64,000 bases of DNA from a virus. Shown piece after piece: positions 31,775-45,858 of this stretch. The stretch covers positions 1 to 64,000 of IMG/VR virus record IMGVR_UViG_3300032313_000668; one strand, written 5' to 3'. The translations under genes were made by a program, and so were the position numbers. Every line of letters begins with the position of its first letter. The stretch's first letter is position 1. The notes below the pieces were generated by a model, which was given only the letters and a program-made list of their open reading frames with translations, did no database searches and was not told the DNA's origin.

Positions 31775-32127
31775 TAGGCTGGCGTCCCCTCTTCTATCTC
31801 TTCTGGCTCTCGAGTTTTATATATGTACTCAAACCAACTGTAGGAGTCAGCATACAAGGATTCTATTTCTCCATACCCAGAGATGGCATACTTTAAACTT
31901 ATAGTTTCGTCATTTAAACGGACAGTCTCTAGAGTTTTTGAAGCGTTTTGTATCTCTAAAACTATGTTGTCTATATGAGAATAAATAGTCTCTAGTGGTA
32001 TGGCATCTACCTCTTCTTTAGGCATGCTCGGACTGAGTTTAGTTTCGTATGACTCACCAGAAACGGATACGACCTTAGCTAAATACGGCCTTGTACCTTT
32101 GGTGTATATAGCGCTGTAGTTAATCAT
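31774..32127 (-). CDS. Hypothetical protein (117 aa)
   Basis: Not recognised. The N-terminal part is beta-rich (NYSAIYTKGTRPYLAKVVSV), the middle acidic and helical (EEVDAIPLETIYSHIDNIVL), and the end acidic. It has no membrane segment or Cys. The start overlaps the stop of the S74 fibre gene (ATGA) and the stop overlaps the next start. By position it could be a chaperone or partner of the fibre, but the sequence does not show this. Confidence 0.5.
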   Translation of the reverse strand: MINYSAIYTKGTRPYLAKVVSVSGESYETKLSPSMPKEEVDAIPLETIYSHIDNIVLEIQNASKTLETVRLNDETISLKYAISGYGEIESLYADSYSWFEYIYKTREPEEIEEGTPA

Positions 32128-33704
32128 TTTGCTTCCTTTAGTCTCTGAATCTCTTCTTTAAGAGAGTCTATCTCATTTTGGTGTTTCTTGAGTAAATCTA
32201 TGACGTAAACAGAGAGAAGGTCATAACGGAGCGAAGCAGGAAGTCCTTCGTTATCATACCAAATTACTTCTTCAATTCCAGCCTCTAAAACCTCTTCAGC
32301 CATGAATCCAAGGACCCAGGGTCTATTGTAGGTTTCCCCGTATTGTTGGTCTCGATGTCCAGCTTTATATTTAAAAGTTTTTGCTTGAAGGTTAAGAAGC
32401 TTTGTGCCATCTACTTCGTAGTCAGCAATGTCTTTTTTAAATCGTATAGAAGATGATGGAGGTTGGTTGTTTGCTGGGTGGGTATGGTTTCCATTTGCGA
32501 GAGAACCATTTGTATTACTTATATTTAAATCAAGAAAAGCCGCTAAACTTCCACGTTGCGATTTAGAAATAGTACCAGCTATTACACCAACTGTACTGTT
32601 GGCTAATATCGTACCACCGCTACTTGTGGCAACATGTCTTGGAGAAAGGCAGCCATCTATCATTTGGAGACTACCAACTGAATCTGTTGCCATTTTTGGC
32701 TGAGTTACAGCTAGGTTTGCAATTTTTGCAGTGGTAACAGAGCCATTTGCTGGTGGGAAAGTAACGTCAGTCGCGATTTTAACCTGTGTAACCGCTCTAT
32801 CAATAAGCTCGCCTGTTCCTACAGCCAAAGGGCCAATATTTAACTGACCGATGGTGTTATCAGCAATGTGGTTTTTAATTCCTTTAGAGCCAGATATTTG
32901 ATTGGCAGCAATTTTGGCAGATGTAACTGAATCACCCACGATAGCGTTTGTGTCAACAGAGTTATTTCCTAGCTCTGATGAACCAATCGCGTCTAGACCA
33001 ATAGCAGTAGCATCCACGGAACCTGATGCGTAGTGCTCTGAGTCAATAGAGCGGTCTATGTATTCAGCTGAGTCTACGGAGTTATCTGCCATCTCGCCGT
33101 TTTCAACAGCGTTTAATCCGATTGCAGCTGCGTTAACAGAACCAGATGAGTAGTGTTCAGCATCAATTGAAAAGTCAATATACTCGGTCGAGTCAATAGA
33201 GTTGTCTGCCATTTCGCCATTTTGAATAGCATTTAGACCAACTGCATTATTGTCTACAGAACCGATTGAGTAATGCTCGGAGTCAATTGAATTATCTATG
33301 TACTCAGCTGAATCAACAGAGTTGTCTGTCATTTCACCGTTTCCTACAGCATTAACACCGATTGCGTTAATATCAACGGAACCCACTCCATAGTGTTCGG
33401 TATCAATTGAGCCGTCAATATAGTTTTCTGAATCAACAGCGTTCGCATCAAGTTCAGAATTTCCTACGGAGTCTGCAGCAAGCTTTGCTGCATTAACTGC
33501 GTTATCTTCAATTGTAGAATTTACGACAGCATTAAGAGCTAGCTGGTCAGTTGCTACGGCACGCGGTTGGATGTTCCCGCGAAGAACAGCCTGGTTTCCA
33601 ATCCTTGATGGCGAAGGTTTTCCTTCTAGGAACTTGAGCCTGCGCTGCACATCAGAGATGTTTCCAGTAATTGTTTTACGACTTGAGCGACGTCTGCTAG
33701 CCAT
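32124..33704 (-). CDS. Tail fibre/spike with C-terminal S74 self-cleaving chaperone domain
   Basis: The 526-aa protein has four near-perfect 40-residue repeats (residues about 80-240; core NGEMADNSVDSAEYID and SIDSEHYSxGSV), then a looser beta-helix-like region with AKIA and VKIA motifs. The C-terminal 110 residues are an intramolecular chaperone of the S74 peptidase type. SSSIRFKKDI carries the Ser-Lys dyad region; it is followed by FKYKAG, VLGFMAEEV and a closing coiled coil (LLKKHQNEIDSLKEEIQRLK). Such domains trimerise the fibre and then cut themselves off. The N-terminus is basic (ASRRRSSRKT). Confidence 0.8.
   Translation of the reverse strand: MASRRRSSRKTITGNISDVQRRLKFLEGKPSPSRIGNQAVLRGNIQPRAVATDQLALNAVVNSTIEDNAVNAAKLAADSVGNSELDANAVDSENYIDGSIDTEHYGVGSVDINAIGVNAVGNGEMTDNSVDSAEYIDNSIDSEHYSIGSVDNNAVGLNAIQNGEMADNSIDSTEYIDFSIDAEHYSSGSVNAAAIGLNAVENGEMADNSVDSAEYIDRSIDSEHYASGSVDATAIGLDAIGSSELGNNSVDTNAIVGDSVTSAKIAANQISGSKGIKNHIADNTIGQLNIGPLAVGTGELIDRAVTQVKIATDVTFPPANGSVTTAKIANLAVTQPKMATDSVGSLQMIDGCLSPRHVATSSGGTILANSTVGVIAGTISKSQRGSLAAFLDLNISNTNGSLANGNHTHPANNQPPSSSIRFKKDIADYEVDGTKLLNLQAKTFKYKAGHRDQQYGETYNRPWVLGFMAEEVLEAGIEEVIWYDNEGLPASLRYDLLSVYVIDLLKKHQNEIDSLKEEIQRLKEAK
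32975..33465 (-). repeat. Four 120-bp coding repeats (40 aa each) in the S74 fibre
   Basis: The 40-residue unit consists of eight pentads whose fourth residue is hydrophobic (for example DNSID, STEYI, DFSID, AEHYS, SGSVN, AAAIG, LNAVE, NGEMA). Four units are closely similar and a fifth is degenerate. This suggests a regular beta-solenoid or fibrous shaft. Confidence 0.75.
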
Positions 33705-35703
33705 TTCTTTGTGTCTTCCAATCTGTTATTAGTTCTAGTTCTACTGCTTCGGGGAATGTCGGACTGTCTGGAACACTCACCTTAATAGAGTTTATCTTTC
33801 GGTATAAACGGTCATCTAGTGGTTCTTGGTCGCTTGCAAGGCGTTGAAGCACAAACTCATCATCAGCAGAGAAAGTGCACCAATCCCCTGGGTAGTATGA
33901 CCCAACAATCGGAGCAAGCGAGCCATTTACAGCGATGCTATATGTCCCAACTGGTGGTCTGGATTCGTTGAGGTAGTCAAGTGCATAGTTATATAGAGAC
34001 TCTTCATCCTCCACTGAATCCATTTTCTCAACTTGGTCAAGAAGTGGCCAGCTACGACCGCTTTTGTTGTTAAGCATGTCTTTTGCAGATGCTCCTGCGT
34101 AAGGCTGACTTGCATCGTCTGTAAGGTCTTCAATATTTCCAACTACAAAAAATCTAGTAGAGGCATCTTCTGCAGTTTCATCAATAGCAAAGTTGATAAC
34201 ATTTCCAGGATAGATAAACATTAAATCTTCTGCGCCTAGTTCTTTTGGTGTAAGTTTTTCTCCAGTTTCAGAGTTATATCTAGTCTCCTGACCAAACCAC
34301 ATTGTGCGTGTAAATTGACCAGTATCGAAGTCATAGTCGCAGTCAATTCGATAATCAAATCCACCCTCGGTTGTGTTGGAATATTTCTCAAGAATTTCTC
34401 CAACAGTTAGCTGCTCAAAACCACGAATAACTTGAGTATCTTGATAAAACCCACTCAATATAGTTCCAAATGGTTCGCTGTAGTAGTCAATGTCAATGTC
34501 ACCGTTTGCAGTAAAGCTACCGTAATCTCCGTAAATAACTTTTGAACCTAAAGTAGCAACTCCACCTCTTGCTGATTCAGGTGGTACGTCTAAAATTCCT
34601 CCAGACTTAAAAGTAAAACTATTAGCAGTAGGAGTCCCAGTAATTGTAAAACGACCATTAAAAATTGTGTCAAGTCGACCAGATAGGTAGGAGTCAATAC
34701 CAGTCACAATTACAGTCTCCCCGACTGAAGCCTGGTGATTACTTTCCAAGGTTAATAGTGCAGTGAAATTTGTAAGCTGCTTTGTTGTGACGTTTAATGT
34801 TCTTAAACCAGGCAAAGAAGTTGTAGGAACATCTGGACCGTTTAGCTCAAAACGAATTGTTCTGTTGTCTGGAACCTCGGTGCATGTGTGTATACCGTCA
34901 AGGTTAGAGCCGACTTCAACAACTTGAATTTCTTGACCAGGAATGACATCGTGGTTTGTAGAAGTTTTAAGAGTTACTACTCCTCCAGAACGCTGCTTTG
35001 AGACAATTGAAACTTGAATTTCTTTAGCTGGCTTGATTACTTCATTAGGGAATCCTAGTCCACCTAAATCTGTAGACATTCTATAAATAAGGTCACGAGC
35101 AAAGTCATAGTTATCAACCAAGCTACGGAAAGCGCCACTGATAATTCCAGTGCCACTTCCATTTGCAGAAGTAGTAGCAAACTGGAAGGTTGTTGCACTT
35201 TGAACGTTAGTAATAGTGTGGATACCATCAACAAGAGGGCTAGTAAAAGTAATTTTTACTTTATCTCCAGCAGAGAACCCGTGAGGTGTTTCAGTTGTTA
35301 TGGTGGCTACTTGGCTGACAATTGAGAAACTAGGGATACCAATAAAATCTGAACCATATTGGATTGTTTGCCAGATATTGCGGTGATAGAAGTAGCTTGT
35401 AAATTCTGCTCCTTCTACTCCCATATTTCTAGAAGCAACATCATAAGAGCGTGACCACACCATTCCGCCCCAAACACAGACGTTGTTGCGAACAACATAC
35501 AAACCAGTGCGTCCTGGCATCGTGGACTCGTAAAGGTTTATTCCTTTGGTTGCTTCAATAAATGGGATGGTTCCGCTAAACCCACCAGCTCTTTTATTTG
35601 CACGCTCGAAGGAGACACCTTTAAAAGGTACTTCTGCAATGACCTGATTTGAGAGTAGGTCAGTAAGGAAGTATCGGTAACTAACTTCTGTTTGTAATGA
35701 CAT
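33697..35703 (-). CDS. Siphovirus minor tail protein, Gp37-like, with inserted modules
   Basis: The 668-aa protein resembles the Siphovirus ReqiPepy6 Gp37-like family of distal tail proteins. Supporting motifs are LYVVRNNVCVWGGMVWSRSY near the N-terminus, later FEQLTVGEILEKY and YRIDCDYDFDTG, and a C-terminal YYPGDWCTFSADDEFV. Between the N- and C-terminal family parts are three copies of the dispersed module (PHGFSAGDKVKITF ... HTITNV; VIPGQEIQVVEV; ASVGETVIVTG ... FNGRFTITGTP). The family probably forms part of the baseplate hub. It overlaps the S74 fibre start by 8 bp. Confidence 0.72.
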   Translation of the reverse strand: MSLQTEVSYRYFLTDLLSNQVIAEVPFKGVSFERANKRAGGFSGTIPFIEATKGINLYESTMPGRTGLYVVRNNVCVWGGMVWSRSYDVASRNMGVEGAEFTSYFYHRNIWQTIQYGSDFIGIPSFSIVSQVATITTETPHGFSAGDKVKITFTSPLVDGIHTITNVQSATTFQFATTSANGSGTGIISGAFRSLVDNYDFARDLIYRMSTDLGGLGFPNEVIKPAKEIQVSIVSKQRSGGVVTLKTSTNHDVIPGQEIQVVEVGSNLDGIHTCTEVPDNRTIRFELNGPDVPTTSLPGLRTLNVTTKQLTNFTALLTLESNHQASVGETVIVTGIDSYLSGRLDTIFNGRFTITGTPTANSFTFKSGGILDVPPESARGGVATLGSKVIYGDYGSFTANGDIDIDYYSEPFGTILSGFYQDTQVIRGFEQLTVGEILEKYSNTTEGGFDYRIDCDYDFDTGQFTRTMWFGQETRYNSETGEKLTPKELGAEDLMFIYPGNVINFAIDETAEDASTRFFVVGNIEDLTDDASQPYAGASAKDMLNNKSGRSWPLLDQVEKMDSVEDEESLYNYALDYLNESRPPVGTYSIAVNGSLAPIVGSYYPGDWCTFSADDEFVLQRLASDQEPLDDRLYRKINSIKVSVPDSPTFPEAVELELITDWKTQRNG

Positions 35704-35731: not shown

Positions 35732-38053
35732 TTAGCCGAGCCAACCAGAGCGGTAATACACCCTTAAGGATGCCGTACTTTCTGGGTTCCCATTGTCGTA
35801 AAACTCAATCTGGTTTTCTCCAGGAGCAAGCTCAATAAAGTCTGCCAAGATATCAATTCTACCTCTTGCACCATTTACATCACCGTTAAAAGCTACTTCT
35901 TTATTCTTGGTGTCTATCTCAAGGATGTCTGCGCTCAATACAGCGGAAGCACCAGATATTCCAGGGAAGAACTGAATGTCGTTCTTCTGAATTGCTTTAC
36001 CAGCTGAGAAAGTCCTAGCAATAGTGTCAGAAACAGTCGCCACTCCGTTTACTCCCCGAAATGCAAGAGTTCCAGCAACTGTTGCTTGTCCCGCTGGGAT
36101 TACATCTTGAAGATTAATAGTCCCTGGGATTTCAGCAAAGGCACCAGTTACGTCAGCTGCAACAACATTACCTGCTGTTTTTTGATATGTAAAAGTATTG
36201 GCTGTTGGGATAGAAACAACGGTGTATGTTCCATTAAAAGTTGCATCGATTCCACTTATAACAACTTGCTCACCGAGGAGCATACCGTGAGAGTTTGTAG
36301 TAGTTATTGTTACTATGTTTCCAATAAGTCCTCTTGACTTAATTACACGCTTACGGGAACGAACTACTACGTTGTTAACGGTAGTTGCATTAATACTAGT
36401 CAGTCCAGTTTTTGTAAATGTAAAAGTAGTGCTGGATGGCAAAGTTGTAATTGCGTAGGTTCCATCTAGTGTGCTACTTCCCTCGATGGTGACGTCCTCA
36501 CCTACAAGGAAGTTGTGATTTTCAGAAGTAGTAATGGTTACAGTAGTACCAGATACAGCCGTTAGTGCGACAGATTTTTGAGTAGAGCGAACTCTTTTAT
36601 ATGAAAATGTATCTGAAGTAACTGCAGAAATTGTATATCCACCATTTAGAGAAATGTCTACTGCTGTTATGTTTACTGGTTCAGCCGCAATGAACCCGTG
36701 TACCTCAGAGGTTGTCAGGGTTACAACATCGTTTGTCATTATTTTGGAGATAATGCTGCGAGCATTAGTACGGGTGGCAGCATATGAAAATTGATTTGGA
36801 GAAGGTATGTCAGTAATAATTGCTGAAACTTCATTATAGTTTTCATCAATACCAGTTACGGTTACTGCTTCTCTTAAAATAAACTGGTGAGGGTCGGTTG
36901 TTGTGAGTGTTGCGATATTAGAAACAAGTACTGCACCAATAACATTTCTTGGTGGAATACGGGTTTTTGGAAAAGTAAAAGTAGTAGACGAAGGCGTAGA
37001 TGCTATTGAATAGTTGCCATCAAAAACAGCATCTACTCCAGCAACAGTAATTTGCTGACCACTAGTAAACCCATGCGGTGTAGTTGTTTCTATTGTAGCT
37101 ACACTGCTTTGTAAAGTCTTATGAGAGACATTTCTTACGGTTGCTGCATCAGCTTCAAATGTAAATGTGGTGTCAGTTGGTACTGAAATAATAAGCTGGT
37201 CACCGTCAAAAGGCTCACCCACACCAGAGATGTAAACAGAATCTCCTGCTTTGAAGTCGTGCTTTGCTGTAGTTGTTAGTGTTGCAATATCTTTAAGAAC
37301 TGTAACGTCATATTCAAGTTGCTTATTTACAATATTGCGAGAGATACTGCCTTTTAGACCTTGAACGATTCCAATAAGTTGATTAGTTGTTCTATTCCAA
37401 ATCTCTCCTGGAGCAGTAAGCTCTCCAGTTACTTCGAGGTAACACGGTACTTGATAGTTTCCAATATTAGTTACAGTGTCAATTCCGTCGTAGTTAAGGT
37501 CTGAATTCTTTGCTGGAATTTCTACATAGTTGTAACCATCTGGGTCAACATCGTTCCATGCGTACTTAATTGGGTCTGGAGCGCGAAGGGGGATTGAAAA
37601 CTCGGTGCGTCCACGAGCATTAACAGTGTTAATTTCTACATCGCCAGCAAGACGAACAAAAGAAGCGCGAATTGGGTTGTTACCAGTCTTTAGCCAAGCA
37701 CCTTTGTATACAAGATTTGTTGCAGCAACAAGTCGGTCACGGGCAGCTTCAACGAGTGCTGGGTCTGGTACAAGGAAGGTTCCAGTTAGATTTAAAGAGC
37801 GAGCAACATACTTTCCCTGAACATCATATGAGCCATCGCCCCAACCGCGCTCAATATCTGGTACTTCTGCAGATGGGTGTTGCCACCAACCTTCAATGTC
37901 GCTAATTACCCAAGTAACACCAAACTCATCAATAGTGTTAAAGATAAAGTCTCCAAGAATAATGTTTCCTTGAAGTTTTAGTTTTTCAATTTCATTTGGC
38001 TGTAAAGGTGTCAGCCCTCGATTGACATAATAGTTCTCTCTAGCTTGTGACAT
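35732..38053 (-). CDS. Distal tail protein (Dit-like) with six inserted beta modules
   Basis: The 773-aa protein starts with a siphoviral distal-tail domain (FNTIDEFGVTWVISDIEGWW, then GSYDVQGKYVARSLNLTGTF). Residues about 250-625 are six tandem modules of about 60 aa with THGF or PHGF and then TYTVVSIPTANTFTY. The C-terminal part (ILADFIELAPGENQIEFYDN, then YYRSGWLG) looks like the closing strands of the tail domain. The modules therefore seem inserted inside it. The protein would ring the tail tip beneath the tape measure. The ATG overlaps the tape measure stop (TAATG). Confidence 0.75.
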   Translation of the reverse strand: MSQARENYYVNRGLTPLQPNEIEKLKLQGNIILGDFIFNTIDEFGVTWVISDIEGWWQHPSAEVPDIERGWGDGSYDVQGKYVARSLNLTGTFLVPDPALVEAARDRLVAATNLVYKGAWLKTGNNPIRASFVRLAGDVEINTVNARGRTEFSIPLRAPDPIKYAWNDVDPDGYNYVEIPAKNSDLNYDGIDTVTNIGNYQVPCYLEVTGELTAPGEIWNRTTNQLIGIVQGLKGSISRNIVNKQLEYDVTVLKDIATLTTTAKHDFKAGDSVYISGVGEPFDGDQLIISVPTDTTFTFEADAATVRNVSHKTLQSSVATIETTTPHGFTSGQQITVAGVDAVFDGNYSIASTPSSTTFTFPKTRIPPRNVIGAVLVSNIATLTTTDPHQFILREAVTVTGIDENYNEVSAIITDIPSPNQFSYAATRTNARSIISKIMTNDVVTLTTSEVHGFIAAEPVNITAVDISLNGGYTISAVTSDTFSYKRVRSTQKSVALTAVSGTTVTITTSENHNFLVGEDVTIEGSSTLDGTYAITTLPSSTTFTFTKTGLTSINATTVNNVVVRSRKRVIKSRGLIGNIVTITTTNSHGMLLGEQVVISGIDATFNGTYTVVSIPTANTFTYQKTAGNVVAADVTGAFAEIPGTINLQDVIPAGQATVAGTLAFRGVNGVATVSDTIARTFSAGKAIQKNDIQFFPGISGASAVLSADILEIDTKNKEVAFNGDVNGARGRIDILADFIELAPGENQIEFYDNGNPESTASLRVYYRSGWLG
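36180..37300 (-). repeat. Six tandem protein modules within the Dit-like gene
   Basis: Six units of about 60 residues each share the pattern (T/H)(H)GF-x-xGxxVxVxGxDxxFxGxYxIxxxPsxTTFTF. DNA identity between units is low, so this is old duplication and not recent slippage. Confidence 0.75.
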
Positions 38054-41000
38054 TATGCGGCACCTTTTCTCATTGTCTGGGCTAGCTTACGTGAAACAAG
38101 CTCAGCGAGTTGTCTTTCATCCATACCAGCAGATGGGTAAACGTTGATAGTTGTTCCACCGCGGGAACCGCCACTCATAAAATCAATCATTGCCTTGTCA
38201 CGCTTTGATAAGCCATCAGCATCAAGAGGCTCTACACGCTCTGCTTTACCAGCTTCACCAATAAGAGCCATCATTCCACCGTTTGTTGCTGGAACAACTC
38301 CACCTCGAGCAAGACGAGGGAATCCAAGTTCAATCTTAGGAATCTGAACACCTAGTACGTTAAAGCCACCAATTGTAAGTTTCTTGCTTGCTACGTTGTT
38401 ATTCCACCAAGCTTTTGCTGCAGCCCAGGCAGCTTGTAGACCGCTTCCTAGTGCATTCCAAAGTCCAGATAGTCCAGCAGCAAACTTAGCTGGAAGACTC
38501 TTTAAGAAGTTAGGAACAGTATTGGTGAAGAAGCCAGTTACATTGCCCCAAGCGGTCTTAGCTGCGTCAAAGAGGAAGGTCCAAATCTTTCCTGCAAATC
38601 CAAGAACCTTGCCAGGAAGTTCTTTATAGAAAGTCCAAACAGTTGTAAACCATGAAACAAGTAATCCCCACGCCTTAACAGCAGCGTCCTTGAGGAAGTC
38701 CCAGACTTTACCAGCAAATCCAAGAACCTTACCTGGTAGAGCTCGGTAGAAGTCCCAAGCAACGGTGAACCATGTAACAAGTTGATTCCATGCATTTACT
38801 GCAGCATCTTTTAGGAAGTTCCAAACTTTGCCCGCAAATTCCATTACCTTGCCAGGAAGAGCAACAAGCCAAGGGAACACAGTGTTAGTAAAGAATCCTG
38901 TTATTTCTGGCCAGAACTTAATAAGCAACATCGGAAGTGGGAACAGAATGAAAGCAATAATTTCTAGAGCTTTTTTGAAGAAGTCACCAATTCCAGGGAG
39001 GAAAGACTGAGTAAACCAAGTTGAAACATTCTTCCAAGCGTTTTTTAGGAAGGTTAATAATCCATTCCACATATCGCCAAATATTTTTCCTAGTTTAGGA
39101 ACTAGGTCTTTAAAGAAGGCAACAATCTTGTCCCAGTTTTCAATAATAAGTGGAAGTACTAAGAATATAATTCCGATAGGTCCGCCAATAAATGCTAGGG
39201 CCTTACCAGCAAGACGTAAGCCCTTACTAGCTACAGTAGCTGCAGCTCCAAGACCTCTCATTGCAATTGACTTAGTATTTGCAGCAACAGTGCTTGTAGC
39301 CATGGCTGTTCTTGCTCGAGTTGATGCAGGGGCTACAAGACCAATAGCTCGCGCTGCTTGGTCAGCAGATATTTGAACACCCTTCATGGCTGCTTGCTTT
39401 TGCTTATCAACAATCATCTGCTTCTGAAGCTCGGTGCGAGCTAATGCAGAACCAGAGCGAAGTTTTCCAAACGGGTCTTTAATAAAACCAAGGGTTTTTG
39501 TTATAGTTCCACCTATTTTGAGGAACGTTCCGATAATAGCTTGTCCTACAAATTTAACTGTTCGGAAGACAAGACCAAAACCCTTGCTAAGACCAATTAC
39601 AACACCGAGTACCCCAAGAATTTTTTGAACAATTGAGTTACCGAATATAGTGTTAGCAATATCTAGAGCACCGTTAAGGACTTTAAAGAAAGTCTCAATG
39701 GAGCCGCTGTCAGTTAGCTTTTCTGAGAGAAGAGCGAACTTTTCAATGAAAGTACCTAAACCAGAAGCGGCTCCATCTGGACCAGTAAGCTTCTCACCGA
39801 TACGACCAAAGGTGTCAACAGCGCGACTTAGGGAGTCGGTAAATTCACCAACACCTTCATTGTCACCAAGCTTAAGAAGCTCTGCAACTATGTTTCCGAT
39901 TAGGCTTAACACCTTTGTAAAGTTTTCTGTAGCGTTGTTGAAAAACTCTTTTAGGCTTCCGTCTTCTCTACCAGCAGATGTAAAGTCCCGAAAGCGCTCG
40001 GCGGCAGTCTTAAAGTAGTCGTTAAGAATATCAACTGCTCCACCCTCTTCGGTGATGACGGCAAAGATATCTTTAAGACCGTCCCAGAAAATACCGAGGT
40101 ACTCACCAATGTCAGCAGTAATCTCGCCTAGACGGTCAAACTTTTTAGTTAAAGCTCCCGATTGATTATTTAGCTTCTGTGTTTCTGCCCAAGCACCAGT
40201 TACTTTTACAAGCCACTCTCCAAATTTTGTAATAAGAGGGCCAGCTGCTTCTAAAATATTTAGGAATCCTGTATAAAGATTTCCTACTACCGTACCTAGG
40301 TTTCCAATAAGCTTGTCGTTGGTTTTCCAAACGCTTTCTAGACTCTTAAGATTGTCAGCATCAGTAATAACATTTGAAAGTTCAATAGCAACATCGCCAA
40401 GAGCCTTACCAGTTCCCTCAAGGAGTGGGTTAAGAACTGGGAATAGGTTGTCAACAAGATTCTGAATTGCAGTTTCAAGTCTTGGGAAAAGCTCTTTACC
40501 AGCAGAAGCTTTAAGTTTTTTAAACTCGTCTTGAATGCTTATTAAAAAGCGAACAAACTTTTGAGCTTCTGGTGAAAGTTTAGCCATTGCATCAGCAAAT
40601 GCGTCAGCAGCACCACCGCCACCCTTTGCATCTGCAAGGTCTTTCCTGGCTTCTTTTACAGCATCGTTTGCATCTGCAAGAGCTCTATTAATATCTCGGA
40701 ATGCTTTTCCACTGTCTATATCTGCTTTTGACTGATTAGCTTCTGCTACGGCTCGGGCAGCATCAATTTCAGCTCGTGAAGAATCAATTTTTGCATCAGC
40801 TTGAGCTTGCTGGGCATCTTTAACTTCTTGAGTTTGCATAATGTCTTGAGCACGCATCTTTGCAACTTCAACAGTCTTTTTCTTTTCTTCGTCTTTTAAA
40901 TCTTTGTTTCGGTCAATTGCTTTACGCAAGTTTAGGTCGGCCTCAGCAAATGCAAGCTCTGCTTCTTGACGTGCGCGAGAGTTAGGTGGGAGGTCTTGGA

Positions 41001-41826
41001 CGCGCTGTAGGGAATCACGAGCCTTCTCAAATTCAATACGGGCTTTCTTTTCAGAGATAGCCCCGCCTTCAGTCTCAAAGCGAAGTTGTTGTAGAGACTC
41101 AATAGCATCTTCGCGAGCCTTAGTTACATCTTTAATAACCTTTTCAGTGTTACGCTGAGCTGCTTCATAAGAACGCTCTGAACGCTTTGCTGAAATAATT
41201 GCATCCATAGCACTGCGCTGCGCGTCTGCATTAGCTTGTTTAATATCTTTAATCTGGTCTACACGGTCTTGCTCAACTCGGAAAAGAGCAAGCTGTGCTT
41301 TTTCAAGTCGTTTATTGGCTGCTTCTACAGCTTTTGCTTGAGCAGCAGAGCCTTGAGAAAGTTTTAATCCTGCTGAAAGTGCAGCTCCAACACCAGAAAG
41401 TGCAAGCTTCAAAGTTATAGCAGATTGAATTAGAGCAGTAAAAGCTCCACCCAATACAAGAATACCGCTAGTGGCTGCAGCGCCTGCTGCAGCACCAAGA
41501 GTTACAAGTCCTGCACCAAGTGCGCCAAGAACTCCAGCAAGAGCAGAGAATGCTGGTGCAGCAAAAAATCCTGCTTGAGTAAGACGACGAAGTTTTACAC
41601 GAGCTCTTTCTGCATCTTTTTCAAAGCTAGAGCCAAGAGCTCGACCTAAGGCTCCGCCTCGGCCACCTCCACCGCCGCTTGACATGGACTCATTTAAAGC
41701 ATTTGAGATATCTCTTCCAGCATCTCTACCAATATCATCTAAGCCAGTAAAAGCACGCTGAATTTCTGGGCGAACACGGTTAGTGAGAGCACGGACAACT
41801 ACGTATGCGTCTCCTACAACTGCCAT
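38053..41826 (-). CDS. Tape measure protein (1257 aa)
   Basis: The order and composition are those of a siphoviral tape measure. A hydrophobic Ala/Gly region (residues about 85-155) is followed by a long charged helical region (about 160-400, rich in Lys, Glu, Ala, Arg). Further hydrophobic segments lie around 720-900, and the C-terminus is Trp-rich with a tandem LPGKVLGFAGKVWDFLKDA unit. It directly follows the frameshifted tail chaperones. At about 0.15 nm per residue the tail would be near 190 nm, using the general rule for the family. No lysozyme-like or peptidase domain was recognised. Confidence 0.9.
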   Translation of the reverse strand: MAVVGDAYVVVRALTNRVRPEIQRAFTGLDDIGRDAGRDISNALNESMSSGGGGGRGGALGRALGSSFEKDAERARVKLRRLTQAGFFAAPAFSALAGVLGALGAGLVTLGAAAGAAATSGILVLGGAFTALIQSAITLKLALSGVGAALSAGLKLSQGSAAQAKAVEAANKRLEKAQLALFRVEQDRVDQIKDIKQANADAQRSAMDAIISAKRSERSYEAAQRNTEKVIKDVTKAREDAIESLQQLRFETEGGAISEKKARIEFEKARDSLQRVQDLPPNSRARQEAELAFAEADLNLRKAIDRNKDLKDEEKKKTVEVAKMRAQDIMQTQEVKDAQQAQADAKIDSSRAEIDAARAVAEANQSKADIDSGKAFRDINRALADANDAVKEARKDLADAKGGGGAADAFADAMAKLSPEAQKFVRFLISIQDEFKKLKASAGKELFPRLETAIQNLVDNLFPVLNPLLEGTGKALGDVAIELSNVITDADNLKSLESVWKTNDKLIGNLGTVVGNLYTGFLNILEAAGPLITKFGEWLVKVTGAWAETQKLNNQSGALTKKFDRLGEITADIGEYLGIFWDGLKDIFAVITEEGGAVDILNDYFKTAAERFRDFTSAGREDGSLKEFFNNATENFTKVLSLIGNIVAELLKLGDNEGVGEFTDSLSRAVDTFGRIGEKLTGPDGAASGLGTFIEKFALLSEKLTDSGSIETFFKVLNGALDIANTIFGNSIVQKILGVLGVVIGLSKGFGLVFRTVKFVGQAIIGTFLKIGGTITKTLGFIKDPFGKLRSGSALARTELQKQMIVDKQKQAAMKGVQISADQAARAIGLVAPASTRARTAMATSTVAANTKSIAMRGLGAAATVASKGLRLAGKALAFIGGPIGIIFLVLPLIIENWDKIVAFFKDLVPKLGKIFGDMWNGLLTFLKNAWKNVSTWFTQSFLPGIGDFFKKALEIIAFILFPLPMLLIKFWPEITGFFTNTVFPWLVALPGKVMEFAGKVWNFLKDAAVNAWNQLVTWFTVAWDFYRALPGKVLGFAGKVWDFLKDAAVKAWGLLVSWFTTVWTFYKELPGKVLGFAGKIWTFLFDAAKTAWGNVTGFFTNTVPNFLKSLPAKFAAGLSGLWNALGSGLQAAWAAAKAWWNNNVASKKLTIGGFNVLGVQIPKIELGFPRLARGGVVPATNGGMMALIGEAGKAERVEPLDADGLSKRDKAMIDFMSGGSRGGTTINVYPSAGMDERQLAELVSRKLAQTMRKGAA
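38440..38880 (-). repeat. Trp-rich tandem repeats in the tape measure
   Basis: About four units of roughly 40 residues start LPGKV or LPAKF and run through FAGKVWxFLKDAA to a WF-rich end. They are near-identical in the central two and degenerate outward. They may be amphipathic segments that contact the membrane when the tape measure is ejected (inference). Confidence 0.7.
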
Positions 41827-41848: not shown

Positions 41849-42226
41849 TTAATTAAGTGGTGCGTCTAGAACCTTGCCAAAAGGCAAAGGACTATCTACA
41901 TCCATATCTGTTGCTGGTACAAATGGTTTTACAGTTTTTGGTGTGTTATTGGTTGGGTCAAACGGAGTGATGTCATTGTCATCATAAAATCCATCCGTAG
42001 GAATCGATGTGCCATCTGCAGCAAACATATTAGAACTACTGCTTGATGACGAATTGATTGCATACTTGTAAGTGGTGCCATACAGAGTTCTATAGACCGA
42101 AGAACGCGTATCCGACCGAACTTGTTGCTGTTCTGCAGAGGCGACAGCAAGGTCATCTTCGAAGAAGTAATGAATTACATCAACCATTTCCGTTGCCTCC
42201 ATCTCTGCTAGTCGTAGCCCGCTCAC
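41849..42226 (-). CDS. Tail assembly chaperone, frameshifted (second) segment
   Basis: The conventional ORF starts at GTG 42226 (125 aa), but that start is unlikely to be used. The same frame is open upstream to about 42311 and reads YTAARALIEWAIDLWPYVNG before the GTG, a conserved-looking sequence. The segment is therefore read as the -1 continuation of the gene at 42259-42606, giving a longer fusion that ends with the acidic DMDVDSPLPFGKVLDAPLN. In siphoviruses a short and a frameshifted long chaperone coat the tape measure during tail assembly. Its position just upstream of the tape measure fits exactly. Confidence 0.85.
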   Translation of the reverse strand: MSGLRLAEMEATEMVDVIHYFFEDDLAVASAEQQQVRSDTRSSVYRTLYGTTYKYAINSSSSSSSNMFAADGTSIPTDGFYDDNDITPFDPTNNTPKTVKPFVPATDMDVDSPLPFGKVLDAPLN

Positions 42227-42258
42227 AAGAGCCTTTCCGTTAACGTAAGGCCAGAGGT

Positions 42259-42606
42259 CTATTGCCCACTCGATGAGTGCTCTGGCCGCTGTGTAGGGCG
42301 GCTTGAATACTCCTCAACCAGCCATGCGGTGATGTCGCCAAGGGCATCGACTGTAACAATCTTTTCTGGGTCAATTAGTAGTGCGTTGAAGCGCTCTGCA
42401 CTCTCTGGGAGAAGTGCTACGTTAAAGAATTCGGTGATGCTTTTTGCAGCACCAGCACCGTCATCAGAAGCGTTTGCAATGATGTCGAGTAGTGTCTTTC
42501 CCTGTAAATTAGGTCGGCACGAAAACTCTTCACCGTGGAGCTTAAATGAGAGTGGGGTCTTGGTAACGTCCCCGCCCGAACCAAAGTCCTTAAATCGGTT
42601 TGTCAT
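42259..42606 (-). CDS. Tail assembly chaperone, first segment
   Basis: This 115-aa protein begins MTNRFKDFGSGGD and contains FKLHGEEFSCRPNLQGKTLL, SITEFFNVALLPESAERFNA and ITAWLVEEYSSRPTQRPEHS. That matches the usual siphoviral short chaperone: an N-terminal beta part, a helical FNALL-type segment, then a Ser/Pro-rich end where the frameshift occurs. In frame 0 it terminates at TAG 42261-42259. It is made in excess over the frameshifted fusion in related phages. Confidence 0.87.
   Translation of the reverse strand: MTNRFKDFGSGGDVTKTPLSFKLHGEEFSCRPNLQGKTLLDIIANASDDGAGAAKSITEFFNVALLPESAERFNALLIDPEKIVTVDALGDITAWLVEEYSSRPTQRPEHSSSGQ
42293..42303 (-). promoter_or_regulatory. Probable -1 programmed ribosomal frameshift site
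   Basis: Frame 0 reads AGC CGC CCT ACA; the -1 frame reads CCG CCC TAC ACA and stays open through the second chaperone segment. A P-site tRNA-Pro slipping from CCT to CCC (42297-42295 to 42298-42296) would re-pair well. The site is not a canonical XXXYYYZ heptamer. The -1 frame has a TGA shortly upstream (about 42312-42314), which confines the slip to this interval. Confidence 0.65.
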
Positions 42607-44811: not shown

Positions 44812-45858
44812 TTACGCTGTTGGGTCCTCAGTTGAAGCAATGATGAAGTCAATTGCATCGTCTGGGTTGTATGTGTCAGAACCTGGAACGTTGTATGTAT
44901 CTGTTGAACCTTGTGAGTCAAAGTCAGATACTGCAAGATATCCACGAGCACGGACTGCTGAACCTACTGGGCTAACTGCTGTAGATGCAACATCTGTTGC
45001 AACCTTTGCATAGCGGAAGCTTGTTGTAGTTGGAACTGCAGTGATTGTGTAGGTTCCATTGAAAGTGGAATCTACGCTGCTGATTGTTACAGACTGACCA
45101 ACTTCGAATCCGTGTGCTGAACCTGTTGTAAGGGTTGCAACGTTTGAAGTTAGAGCCTTGTTGTTGATAGTCTTTGTTGACTCGTCGAACCAGCGGTAGA
45201 AGCCCTTAAGACCCTGAGGTGCCCAGTCAGTGCGTGCATAAGCGTATGGACGCTCAGTCGCGATTGGGTACTCCCAACGGCCATCAAGACCTGAATCAAA
45301 TTCAATGTTTCCAAGGCCGTAACCTTCGAATGTGTTAGCAAGAAGACCATTCTCAATTACACGGTCACCTGACTGACGAAGCTTGACGTATGGGAATACC
45401 CAGTAGAAGTAAGGAAGTGTGCTTGCACGCTTTCCGTCCTTAACTGCGAAAGACCATACCTCAACAGCAACACCGTTGCCTGCTGGGTCATCGCCAACGG
45501 CAGGGGCAGCCCAACCAATTGACTTGTTCTCTGGTGATGCGTAAGAACCGAAGTTCTTGCGAAGTAGCAAACCACCTGACATAAGAGCTGTTAGCTCTGG
45601 GTCTGGGTCGCAAATTGCGATTTCCATAGTGATTCGCTTGAGGGTGTCAGGAGCTTTGTAAGATACACATACTGTACCGTCTGCTGACTTCTCAACGATT
45701 TCGTCACCCTCTTCATATTCAGGGGTGAATGATGTACGAAGGAATGCAGAGGTAGTGTAGCTATCTCCTGCACCCGTTAGTAGGTTGCCAGCGGCGTCAA
45801 GTCGAGTGACTCGGATTGCAACGCCTTGGACGCTGGCTGCGTAGTCCTGTGTAGCCAT
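44812..45858 (-). CDS. Major tail (tube) protein with C-terminal beta module
   Basis: The 348-aa protein fits a siphoviral major tail protein. Its features are VQGVAIRVTRLDAAGNLLTG, then YTTSAFLRTSFTPEYEEGDE, VCVSYKAPDTLKRITMEIAI, and LRQSGDRVIENGLLANTFEG. Near residues 235-295 it has one copy of the dispersed module (AHGFEVGQSVTISSVD, then FNGTYTITAVPTTTSFRY), which would project from each tube subunit. A strong terminator follows the gene and the capsid genes precede it. Tube identity is from order and composition; the fold is known from the family. Confidence 0.8.
   Translation of the reverse strand: MATQDYAASVQGVAIRVTRLDAAGNLLTGAGDSYTTSAFLRTSFTPEYEEGDEIVEKSADGTVCVSYKAPDTLKRITMEIAICDPDPELTALMSGGLLLRKNFGSYASPENKSIGWAAPAVGDDPAGNGVAVEVWSFAVKDGKRASTLPYFYWVFPYVKLRQSGDRVIENGLLANTFEGYGLGNIEFDSGLDGRWEYPIATERPYAYARTDWAPQGLKGFYRWFDESTKTINNKALTSNVATLTTGSAHGFEVGQSVTISSVDSTFNGTYTITAVPTTTSFRYAKVATDVASTAVSPVGSAVRARGYLAVSDFDSQGSTDTYNVPGSDTYNPDDAIDFIIASTEDPTA

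What the first reader, a model, noticed from the sequence alone, without database searches (positions are those of the whole stretch)
41849..42606. Tail chaperones joined by an unusual -1 frameshift site
The second segment's frame is open well upstream of any start codon and reads YTAARALIEWAIDLWPYVNG there, so the GTG at 42226 is very unlikely to be the true start. A TGA in the -1 frame limits the slip to about 42296-42311. The best candidate is CGC CCT (Pro CCT to CCC), not a canonical slippery heptamer, so the mechanism may rest on a single P-site tRNA.
Basis: partly seen in the sequence, partly recalled or inferred. Interest (0 to 1): 0.6.

Follow-up and report, generated by a model that had tools for sequence, protein, structure and literature searches.

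The report
Phage tail-chaperone frameshift at a proline codon
This phage very probably makes its two tail-assembly helper proteins from one message by letting some ribosomes slip back one base at a fixed proline codon in front of an RNA hairpin; the trick itself is well known, but the slip site here lacks the usual double-slip sequence and seems to depend on one tRNA.

Summary
Minus-strand TacA (42606-42262) and the next ORF lie in a -1 relation just upstream of the tape measure gene. All 259 loci in which both halves were found show the same overlapping -1 arrangement; 99 distinct relatives were analysed. The -1 frame is conserved protein well upstream of GTG 42226, and codon periodicity switches frame across the overlap. 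The TGA at 42316-42314 bounds the slip only on its 5' side. In relatives, frame stops on both sides narrow it to CGN-CCN-NNN. CCN (here CCT, 42297-42295) is the only codon at which a -1 re-pairing works in all 99. The preceding Arg codon is always CGC or CGT, as re-pairing with tRNA-Pro requires. At the same position some relatives carry CCCAAAT (canonical) or CCCGGAA (a motif already listed by PRFect), which allow a two-tRNA slip. The window and most relatives carry C CCT ACN, where the A-site tRNA cannot re-pair, so a P-site tRNA-Pro slip is the best model. This is a known kind of frameshift with an unusual slip site; nothing was tested experimentally.

The parts
42262..42606 (-). TacA, the zero-frame tail assembly chaperone (115 aa); stop TAG 42261-42259
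   Evidence: 59% identical to the annotated tail assembly chaperone of Actinomycetia phage DSL-LC01, 44-48% to Microbacterium phages. Lies between the major tail protein/connector genes and the tape measure gene.
41849..42295 (-). TacB, the -1-frame extension (148 aa plus stop), from the first -1 codon after the slip (TAC 42295-42293). The fusion TacA-TacB would be 104 + 148 = 252 aa; base 42295 is read twice.
   Evidence: translate the two halves; the -1 frame is open from 42313 and conserved in 99 distinct relatives.
42295..42300 (-). Slip site CGC CCT: peptidyl-tRNA-Pro on CCT (42297-42295) re-pairs with CCC (42298-42296); the next A-site codon becomes TAC instead of ACA
   Evidence: The only codon in the overlap whose first two positions re-pair after -1 slip in 99 of 99 relatives (92 Watson-Crick, 7 needing U.G). 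Arg codon is CGC 92 / CGT 7, no other Arg codon.
42249..42287 (-). Stimulatory hairpin: GGCCAGAG (42287-42280) pairs with CTCTGGCC (42256-42249), with an inner CACTC/GAGTG hairpin (42279-42275 with 42271-42267); starts 7 nt after CCT
   Evidence: Fold -18.6 kcal/mol, z -3.2. Outer helix 8 of 8 bp; 86% of 91 relatives have at least 7 of 8 pairs versus 10% of synonymous randomisations. Leu codon in the 3' arm CTC 66 / CTT 16 / CTA 1 while other Leu positions use all six codons. Covariation proper is sparse.
42310..42315 (-). SD-like GAGGAG, 12 nt upstream of the CCT codon; candidate upstream stimulator
   Evidence: Sequence. Glu codons at these two places are GAG in 78 of 93 and 49 of 60 relatives, against 40% GAG elsewhere. 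Some relatives have GAGCAG instead.
42314..42316 (-). TGA in the -1 frame: 5' bound of the slip in the window
42224..42226 (-). GTG called as start of the second ORF by ORF finding; not the main start
   Evidence: Conserved -1 coding lies upstream. Codon at this place in relatives: GTG 42, ATG 35, others 22; none of four SD-like motifs (AGGA, GGAG, GAGG, AGGAG) within 16 nt upstream in any.
38053..41826 (-). Tape measure protein, 22 nt downstream of TacB (context)
   Evidence: PHROG tape measure families, best E 6.9e-55.

Best explanation
TacA and TacB are the lambda G / GT type of tail assembly chaperone pair. Most ribosomes make TacA (115 aa). A minority slip back one base when peptidyl-tRNA-Pro sits on CCT (42297-42295) and re-pairs with the overlapping CCC, then read TAC and go on to make a 252-aa TacA-TacB fusion. 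In this phage and most of its relatives the A-site codon (ACN) cannot re-pair in the -1 frame, so the slip would happen with only the P-site tRNA paired. It is favoured by the pause at a hairpin 7 nt downstream and by an SD-like GAGGAG upstream. Shown by sequence comparison: the -1 fusion frame, the slip position, constraint on the base before CCN, constraint on the hairpin arms. Inferred: that slippage occurs, its rate, that one tRNA suffices, and the roles of the hairpin and SD-like element.
For: All 259 loci with both halves show an overlapping -1 relation. The most variable base of the codon moves from zero-frame position 3 upstream to -1-frame position 3 downstream. Frame stops in relatives bracket the slip: seven sequences (L002, L172, L208, L216, L225, L230, L236) have a -1 stop immediately before the NCG codon, and L230 has a zero-frame TAA right after CGC CCA AAT. 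Pro CCN is the sole codon where -1 re-pairing works in all 99. The third base of the Arg codon before it is free in the zero frame, yet is C or T in 99 of 99, while Arg elsewhere is AGA in 37%, CGT 21%, CGC 13%. Canonical CCCAAAT (8 sequences) and CCCGGAA (14) occupy exactly this position in relatives and the classes have interchanged repeatedly on the family tree. PRFect reports CCCGGAA as a phage slip motif (PMC10885494; PMC10274946). Gordonia phage GMA2, whose record states a programmed frameshift, has G_GGA_AAC about one codon upstream of the homologous place. Hairpin and codon-bias evidence.
Against: No expression data. Seven relatives have TCC instead of CCC (CGT CCT), which re-pairs only with a U.G pair. 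True compensatory changes in the hairpin are few (one pair, three sequences) and the five Microbacterium phages lack this stem. The constraint to C/T could in part reflect -1 coding (Pro/Ser) if the slip were earlier, although the -1 stops exclude that in seven sequences. Single-tRNA slippage is usually weak unless the A-site codon is slow; host tRNA levels are unknown.
Confidence: 0.85

Rival explanations
1. Two-tRNA slip on C CGC CCT (heptamer CCGCCCT) with tRNA-Arg in the P site and tRNA-Pro in the A site.
For: The A-site Pro re-pairs well (CCT to CCC), and the 7-nt gap to the hairpin fits this placement.
Against: After the slip, Arg codon CGC would face NCG, mismatched at position 2 in all 99 relatives. 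The base before CGC is free to vary (C 66, G 18, A 8, T 3 of 95; entropy 1.23 bits), as expected if it is not used.
Confidence: 0.08
2. No frameshift: TacB is made as a separate protein from GTG 42226 or another start.
For: GTG or ATG at this place in 77 of 99 relatives; Val there is GTG in 42 of 50. Annotators of DSL-LC01 and the Microbacterium and Arthrobacter phages call two separate genes.
Against: More than 20 codons upstream of GTG are conserved in the -1 frame, with -1-frame codon periodicity after the TacA stop. None of four SD-like motifs searched was found upstream in any relative. The GTG/ATG bias is what repeated Val/Met exchange would give. An extra internal product in addition to the fusion remains possible.
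Confidence: 0.05
3. The frame change happens by transcriptional slippage or is a sequencing or assembly error.
For: None specific.
Against: No homopolymer run; the site is conserved across 99 distinct sequences from many samples and isolated phages, with no in-frame version found.
Confidence: 0.01
4. The slip lies further downstream, for example at GGG in CAG GGG CCA.
For: In 42 of 96 relatives that allow it, the codon four after CGN (GGG after G) re-pairs by Watson-Crick.
Against: The window has CGG there, which cannot re-pair; L230 has already stopped (TAA) in the zero frame before it.
Confidence: 0.02

Closest known systems
Lambda G / GT programmed -1 frameshift and its equivalents in tailed phages (Xu, Hendrix, Duda 2004, cited in PMC5009743)
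   Same: Place between major tail protein and tape measure gene, short chaperone with a -1 extension near its 3' end, overlap of the two frames.
   Different: Lambda uses a GGGAAAG-type heptamer (own knowledge); here the second codon cannot re-pair, and a proline codon is the constant element.
CCCGGAA ('threetwotwo') and other non-standard motifs of PRFect (PMC10885494)
   Same: Relatives of this phage, including Microbacterium phages Cece, Big4, Zooman, Pumpernickel and A3Wally, have CCCGGAA at the same position.
   Different: The window has CCCTACA; it did not appear in the passages of that paper read here (its motif figure was not readable here).
E. coli dnaX frameshift signal (SD-like element, slip site, hairpin)
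   Same: Three-part layout: SD-like sequence upstream, slip site, hairpin downstream (layout as described in PMC3711429).
   Different: dnaX slips on A_AAA_AAG; here CCT ACA, with hairpin and SD roles not tested.
One-tRNA ('hungry codon') -1 frameshifting (Rodnina and coworkers, as reviewed in PMC9426525)
   Same: Slip by the P-site tRNA while the A site is empty.
   Different: Described there as a second route at a two-tRNA slip site (HIV-1) when A-site tRNA is scarce; here the site offers no two-tRNA route.

Membership tests
Tailed-phage tail assembly chaperone pair with programmed frameshift (lambda G/GT type) | Gene order: major tail protein, connectors, chaperone pair, tape measure | tested here: met
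   major tail protein 45858-44812, connectors, TacA/TacB, tape measure 41826-38053.
Tailed-phage tail assembly chaperone pair with programmed frameshift (lambda G/GT type) | Homology of the first ORF to known tail assembly chaperones | tested here: met
   tblastn to annotated tail assembly chaperones, best E 8e-39. Pfam Phage_TAC_16 only weakly (E 0.044 for the window, best 1.2e-4 among 12 members).
Tailed-phage tail assembly chaperone pair with programmed frameshift (lambda G/GT type) | Second ORF overlaps in the -1 (or +1) frame and is conserved upstream of any start | tested here: met
Tailed-phage tail assembly chaperone pair with programmed frameshift (lambda G/GT type) | Fusion protein made at a low ratio to the short form and needed for tail assembly | not testable with these tools
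   Needs infected cells or a reporter.
Canonical X XXY YYZ two-tRNA -1 slip site | Both P-site and A-site codons re-pair after the slip | tested here: not met
   Window CCCTACA: P site re-pairs, A site ACA to TAC does not. Met in CCCAAAT, and with G.U pairing in CCCGGAA, relatives.
dnaX-like stimulated -1 signal | Stable stem starting about 5-9 nt after the slip site | tested here: met
   stem begins 7 nt after CCT (4 nt after the A-site codon ACA).
dnaX-like stimulated -1 signal | Upstream SD-like element about 10 nt before the slip site | tested here: inconclusive
   GAGGAG present with GAG bias, but weaker versions (GAGCAG) occur in relatives.

The most novel reading that the evidence does not exclude
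A large group of freshwater and soil actinophages carries out its tail-chaperone -1 frameshift by P-site tRNA-Pro alone, with lineages moving back and forth between one-tRNA (CCT ACN) and two-tRNA (CCC AAA T, CCC GGA A) slip sites at one fixed position.
Probability: 0.6. Interest if true: 0.55.

Novelty: new variant of a known kind. Interest (0 to 1): 0.42.

Why it matters
The family is a natural series in which the P-site codon is held constant while the A-site codon varies from slippable to unslippable, so it can show what a -1 frameshift really needs. It also means that searches for canonical heptamers miss real frameshifts. The records of DSL-LC01 and the Microbacterium and Arthrobacter relatives annotate the second half as a separate, truncated hypothetical protein.

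Tried and rejected
A prophage relative in bacterial genomes was sought with the TacB alignment: none found, so the host was not determined this way. Rfam: no match in the region. A PHROG or Pfam name for TacB: none for the window's TacB, and only weak hits (best E 0.008) to families without a named function among its relatives. A hairpin around the slip site itself (GCCGC...GCGGC) was noticed by eye but is not kept in relatives. A +2 shift was rejected because tRNA-Pro cannot pair with TAC. RNAalifold consensus gives the same core stem but a small covariation term, so I rest the hairpin on codon bias and randomisation rather than on covariation. The z-scores against dinucleotide shuffles are near zero or positive in one subgroup (L017-L043), which keeps a 7-bp stem.

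Full report
What is there. On the minus strand the window holds a standard tail module: major tail protein (45858-44812), connector genes, TacA (42606-42262, 115 aa), a second ORF open from 42313 to 41849 in the -1 frame, and the tape measure gene from 41826. The window lies in a 118,251-base virus record. TacA is 59% identical to the annotated tail assembly chaperone of the lake-water Actinomycetia phage DSL-LC01 and 32-48% to those of Microbacterium, Arthrobacter and Gordonia phages.

Is the -1 frame real coding upstream of GTG 42226? Yes. In 259 loci in which both halves were recognised by profile, the relation is -1 and overlapping in every case. In 99 distinct sequences the distance from the slip codon to the conserved Trp is the same without exception. 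Column variability is highest at zero-frame third positions upstream (1.31 bits), and at -1-frame third positions downstream (1.45 bits, with 0.34 and 0.77 at the other two), with the overlap intermediate. GTG 42226 lies inside this conserved stretch. Its place holds GTG or ATG in 77 of 99, which Val/Met exchange can explain; an extra internal start is not excluded.

Where is the slip? In the window the 3' bound is the TacA stop at 42261. Relatives narrow it: seven sequences have a -1 stop directly before the codon that overlaps CGN, and L230 has a zero-frame TAA after CGC CCA AAT. I scored every codon that both frames allow for -1 re-pairing of its own tRNA. CCN scores in 99 of 99 (92 Watson-Crick at positions 1 and 2, 7 with U.G); the Arg codon before it scores in none; the codon after it in 24. 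The third base of the Arg codon is free in the zero frame, yet is C in 92 and T in 7, while Arg elsewhere in these genes is AGA in 37%, CGT 21%, CGC 13%. C or U is just what the first codon position needs to pair with G36 of tRNA-Pro.

One tRNA or two? At the same position eight relatives have C CCA AAT (CCCAAAT, canonical) and fourteen have C CCG GAA (CCCGGAA), a motif that PRFect reports from phage data. In both the A-site tRNA can re-pair, in CCCGGAA through a G.U pair. The window has C CCT ACA, and most relatives C CCT ACG/ACC/ACA: the A-site tRNA cannot re-pair. On the TacA-TacB tree the five slip classes need 16 changes, so types have replaced one another at a fixed place. Gordonia phage GMA2, annotated as using a programmed frameshift, has G_GGA_AAC about one codon upstream of the homologous place (alignment by eye). 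The simplest reading is that the constant element is P-site tRNA-Pro and that the window's type works with that tRNA alone. One-tRNA -1 slippage is documented as a second route in other systems (PMC9426525). tRNA-Pro is known to be prone to frame errors in the forward direction (PMC4519876). A possible reason for CCT, from general knowledge, is that an anticodon GGG tRNA would exchange a G.U wobble for a full G-C pair by slipping to CCC; the host's tRNAs are not known.

Stimulators. A hairpin starts 7 nt after CCT: GGCCAGAG (42287-42280) with CTCTGGCC (42256-42249), enclosing CACTC/GAGTG; -18.6 kcal/mol, z -3.2. When codons are replaced by synonymous -1-frame codons, 10% of randomised sequences keep 7 or more of the 8 pairs, against 86% of the 91 real sequences, and mean folding z is -1.7. 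The Leu codon in the 3' arm is CTC 66, CTT 16, CTA 1, while other conserved Leu columns in the same sequences use all six codons. Compensatory changes are few: one pair with three sequences, such as GGCCAAAG/CTTTGGCC in L050. The Arthrobacter phages lack this stem but have another hairpin 6 nt after CCT (GCGTCC...GGACGC in L009), and L024, L076 and L080 have GGAGCC...GGCTCC; the Microbacterium phages have neither. Upstream, GAGGAG (42315-42310) is SD-like, and Glu at those two places is GAG in 84% and 82% of cases against 40% elsewhere.

Limits. Everything is sequence comparison. The 99 sequences are related, so counts are not independent. The randomisation keeps the -1 protein but not the overlapping zero-frame protein, which also constrains the 5' arm. 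The frameshift rate, the junction peptide and the one-tRNA step need experiments.

Verdict. By gene order and homology this is a member of the tail-chaperone frameshift pairs of tailed phages, with a non-canonical slip site whose position is well fixed by comparison. The class of event is known; the slip-site type, and the natural series of slip sites around one proline codon, are the new part.

Noticed in passing
window 44812-45858, 33697-35703 and 35732-38053 (-): A module of about 45-50 aa (like NVATLTTGSAHGFEVGQSVTISSVDSTFNGTYTITAVPTTTSFRY) occurs in the major tail protein and, repeated, in two minor tail proteins; PHROG 9998 hits two of these proteins.
   Followed up: no
window 32124-33704 (-): Degenerate repeats (NSVDSAEYIDNSIDSEHYSIGSVD...) followed by a C-terminal region resembling an intramolecular chaperone (SSSIRFKKDIADYE), likely a tail fibre protein; family by eye only.
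   Followed up: no
L266 19583-19661 (genome position about 103583): The phage carries five tRNA genes outside the window, including a tRNA-Tyr with the unusual anticodon AUA and a tRNA-Thr (UGU) that would read the ACA codon following the slip codon.
   Followed up: no
L002-L009 (DSL-LC01, Microbacterium and Arthrobacter phage records): The second chaperone half is annotated as a separate, start-truncated hypothetical protein; the frameshift seems unannotated in these records.
   Followed up: partly
L008, L009, L254-L257 just after the slip site: Arthrobacter-type relatives have a different short hairpin (GCGTCC...GGACGC or GGGCGC) in place of the window's stem, starting about 6 nt after CCT.
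   Followed up: partly
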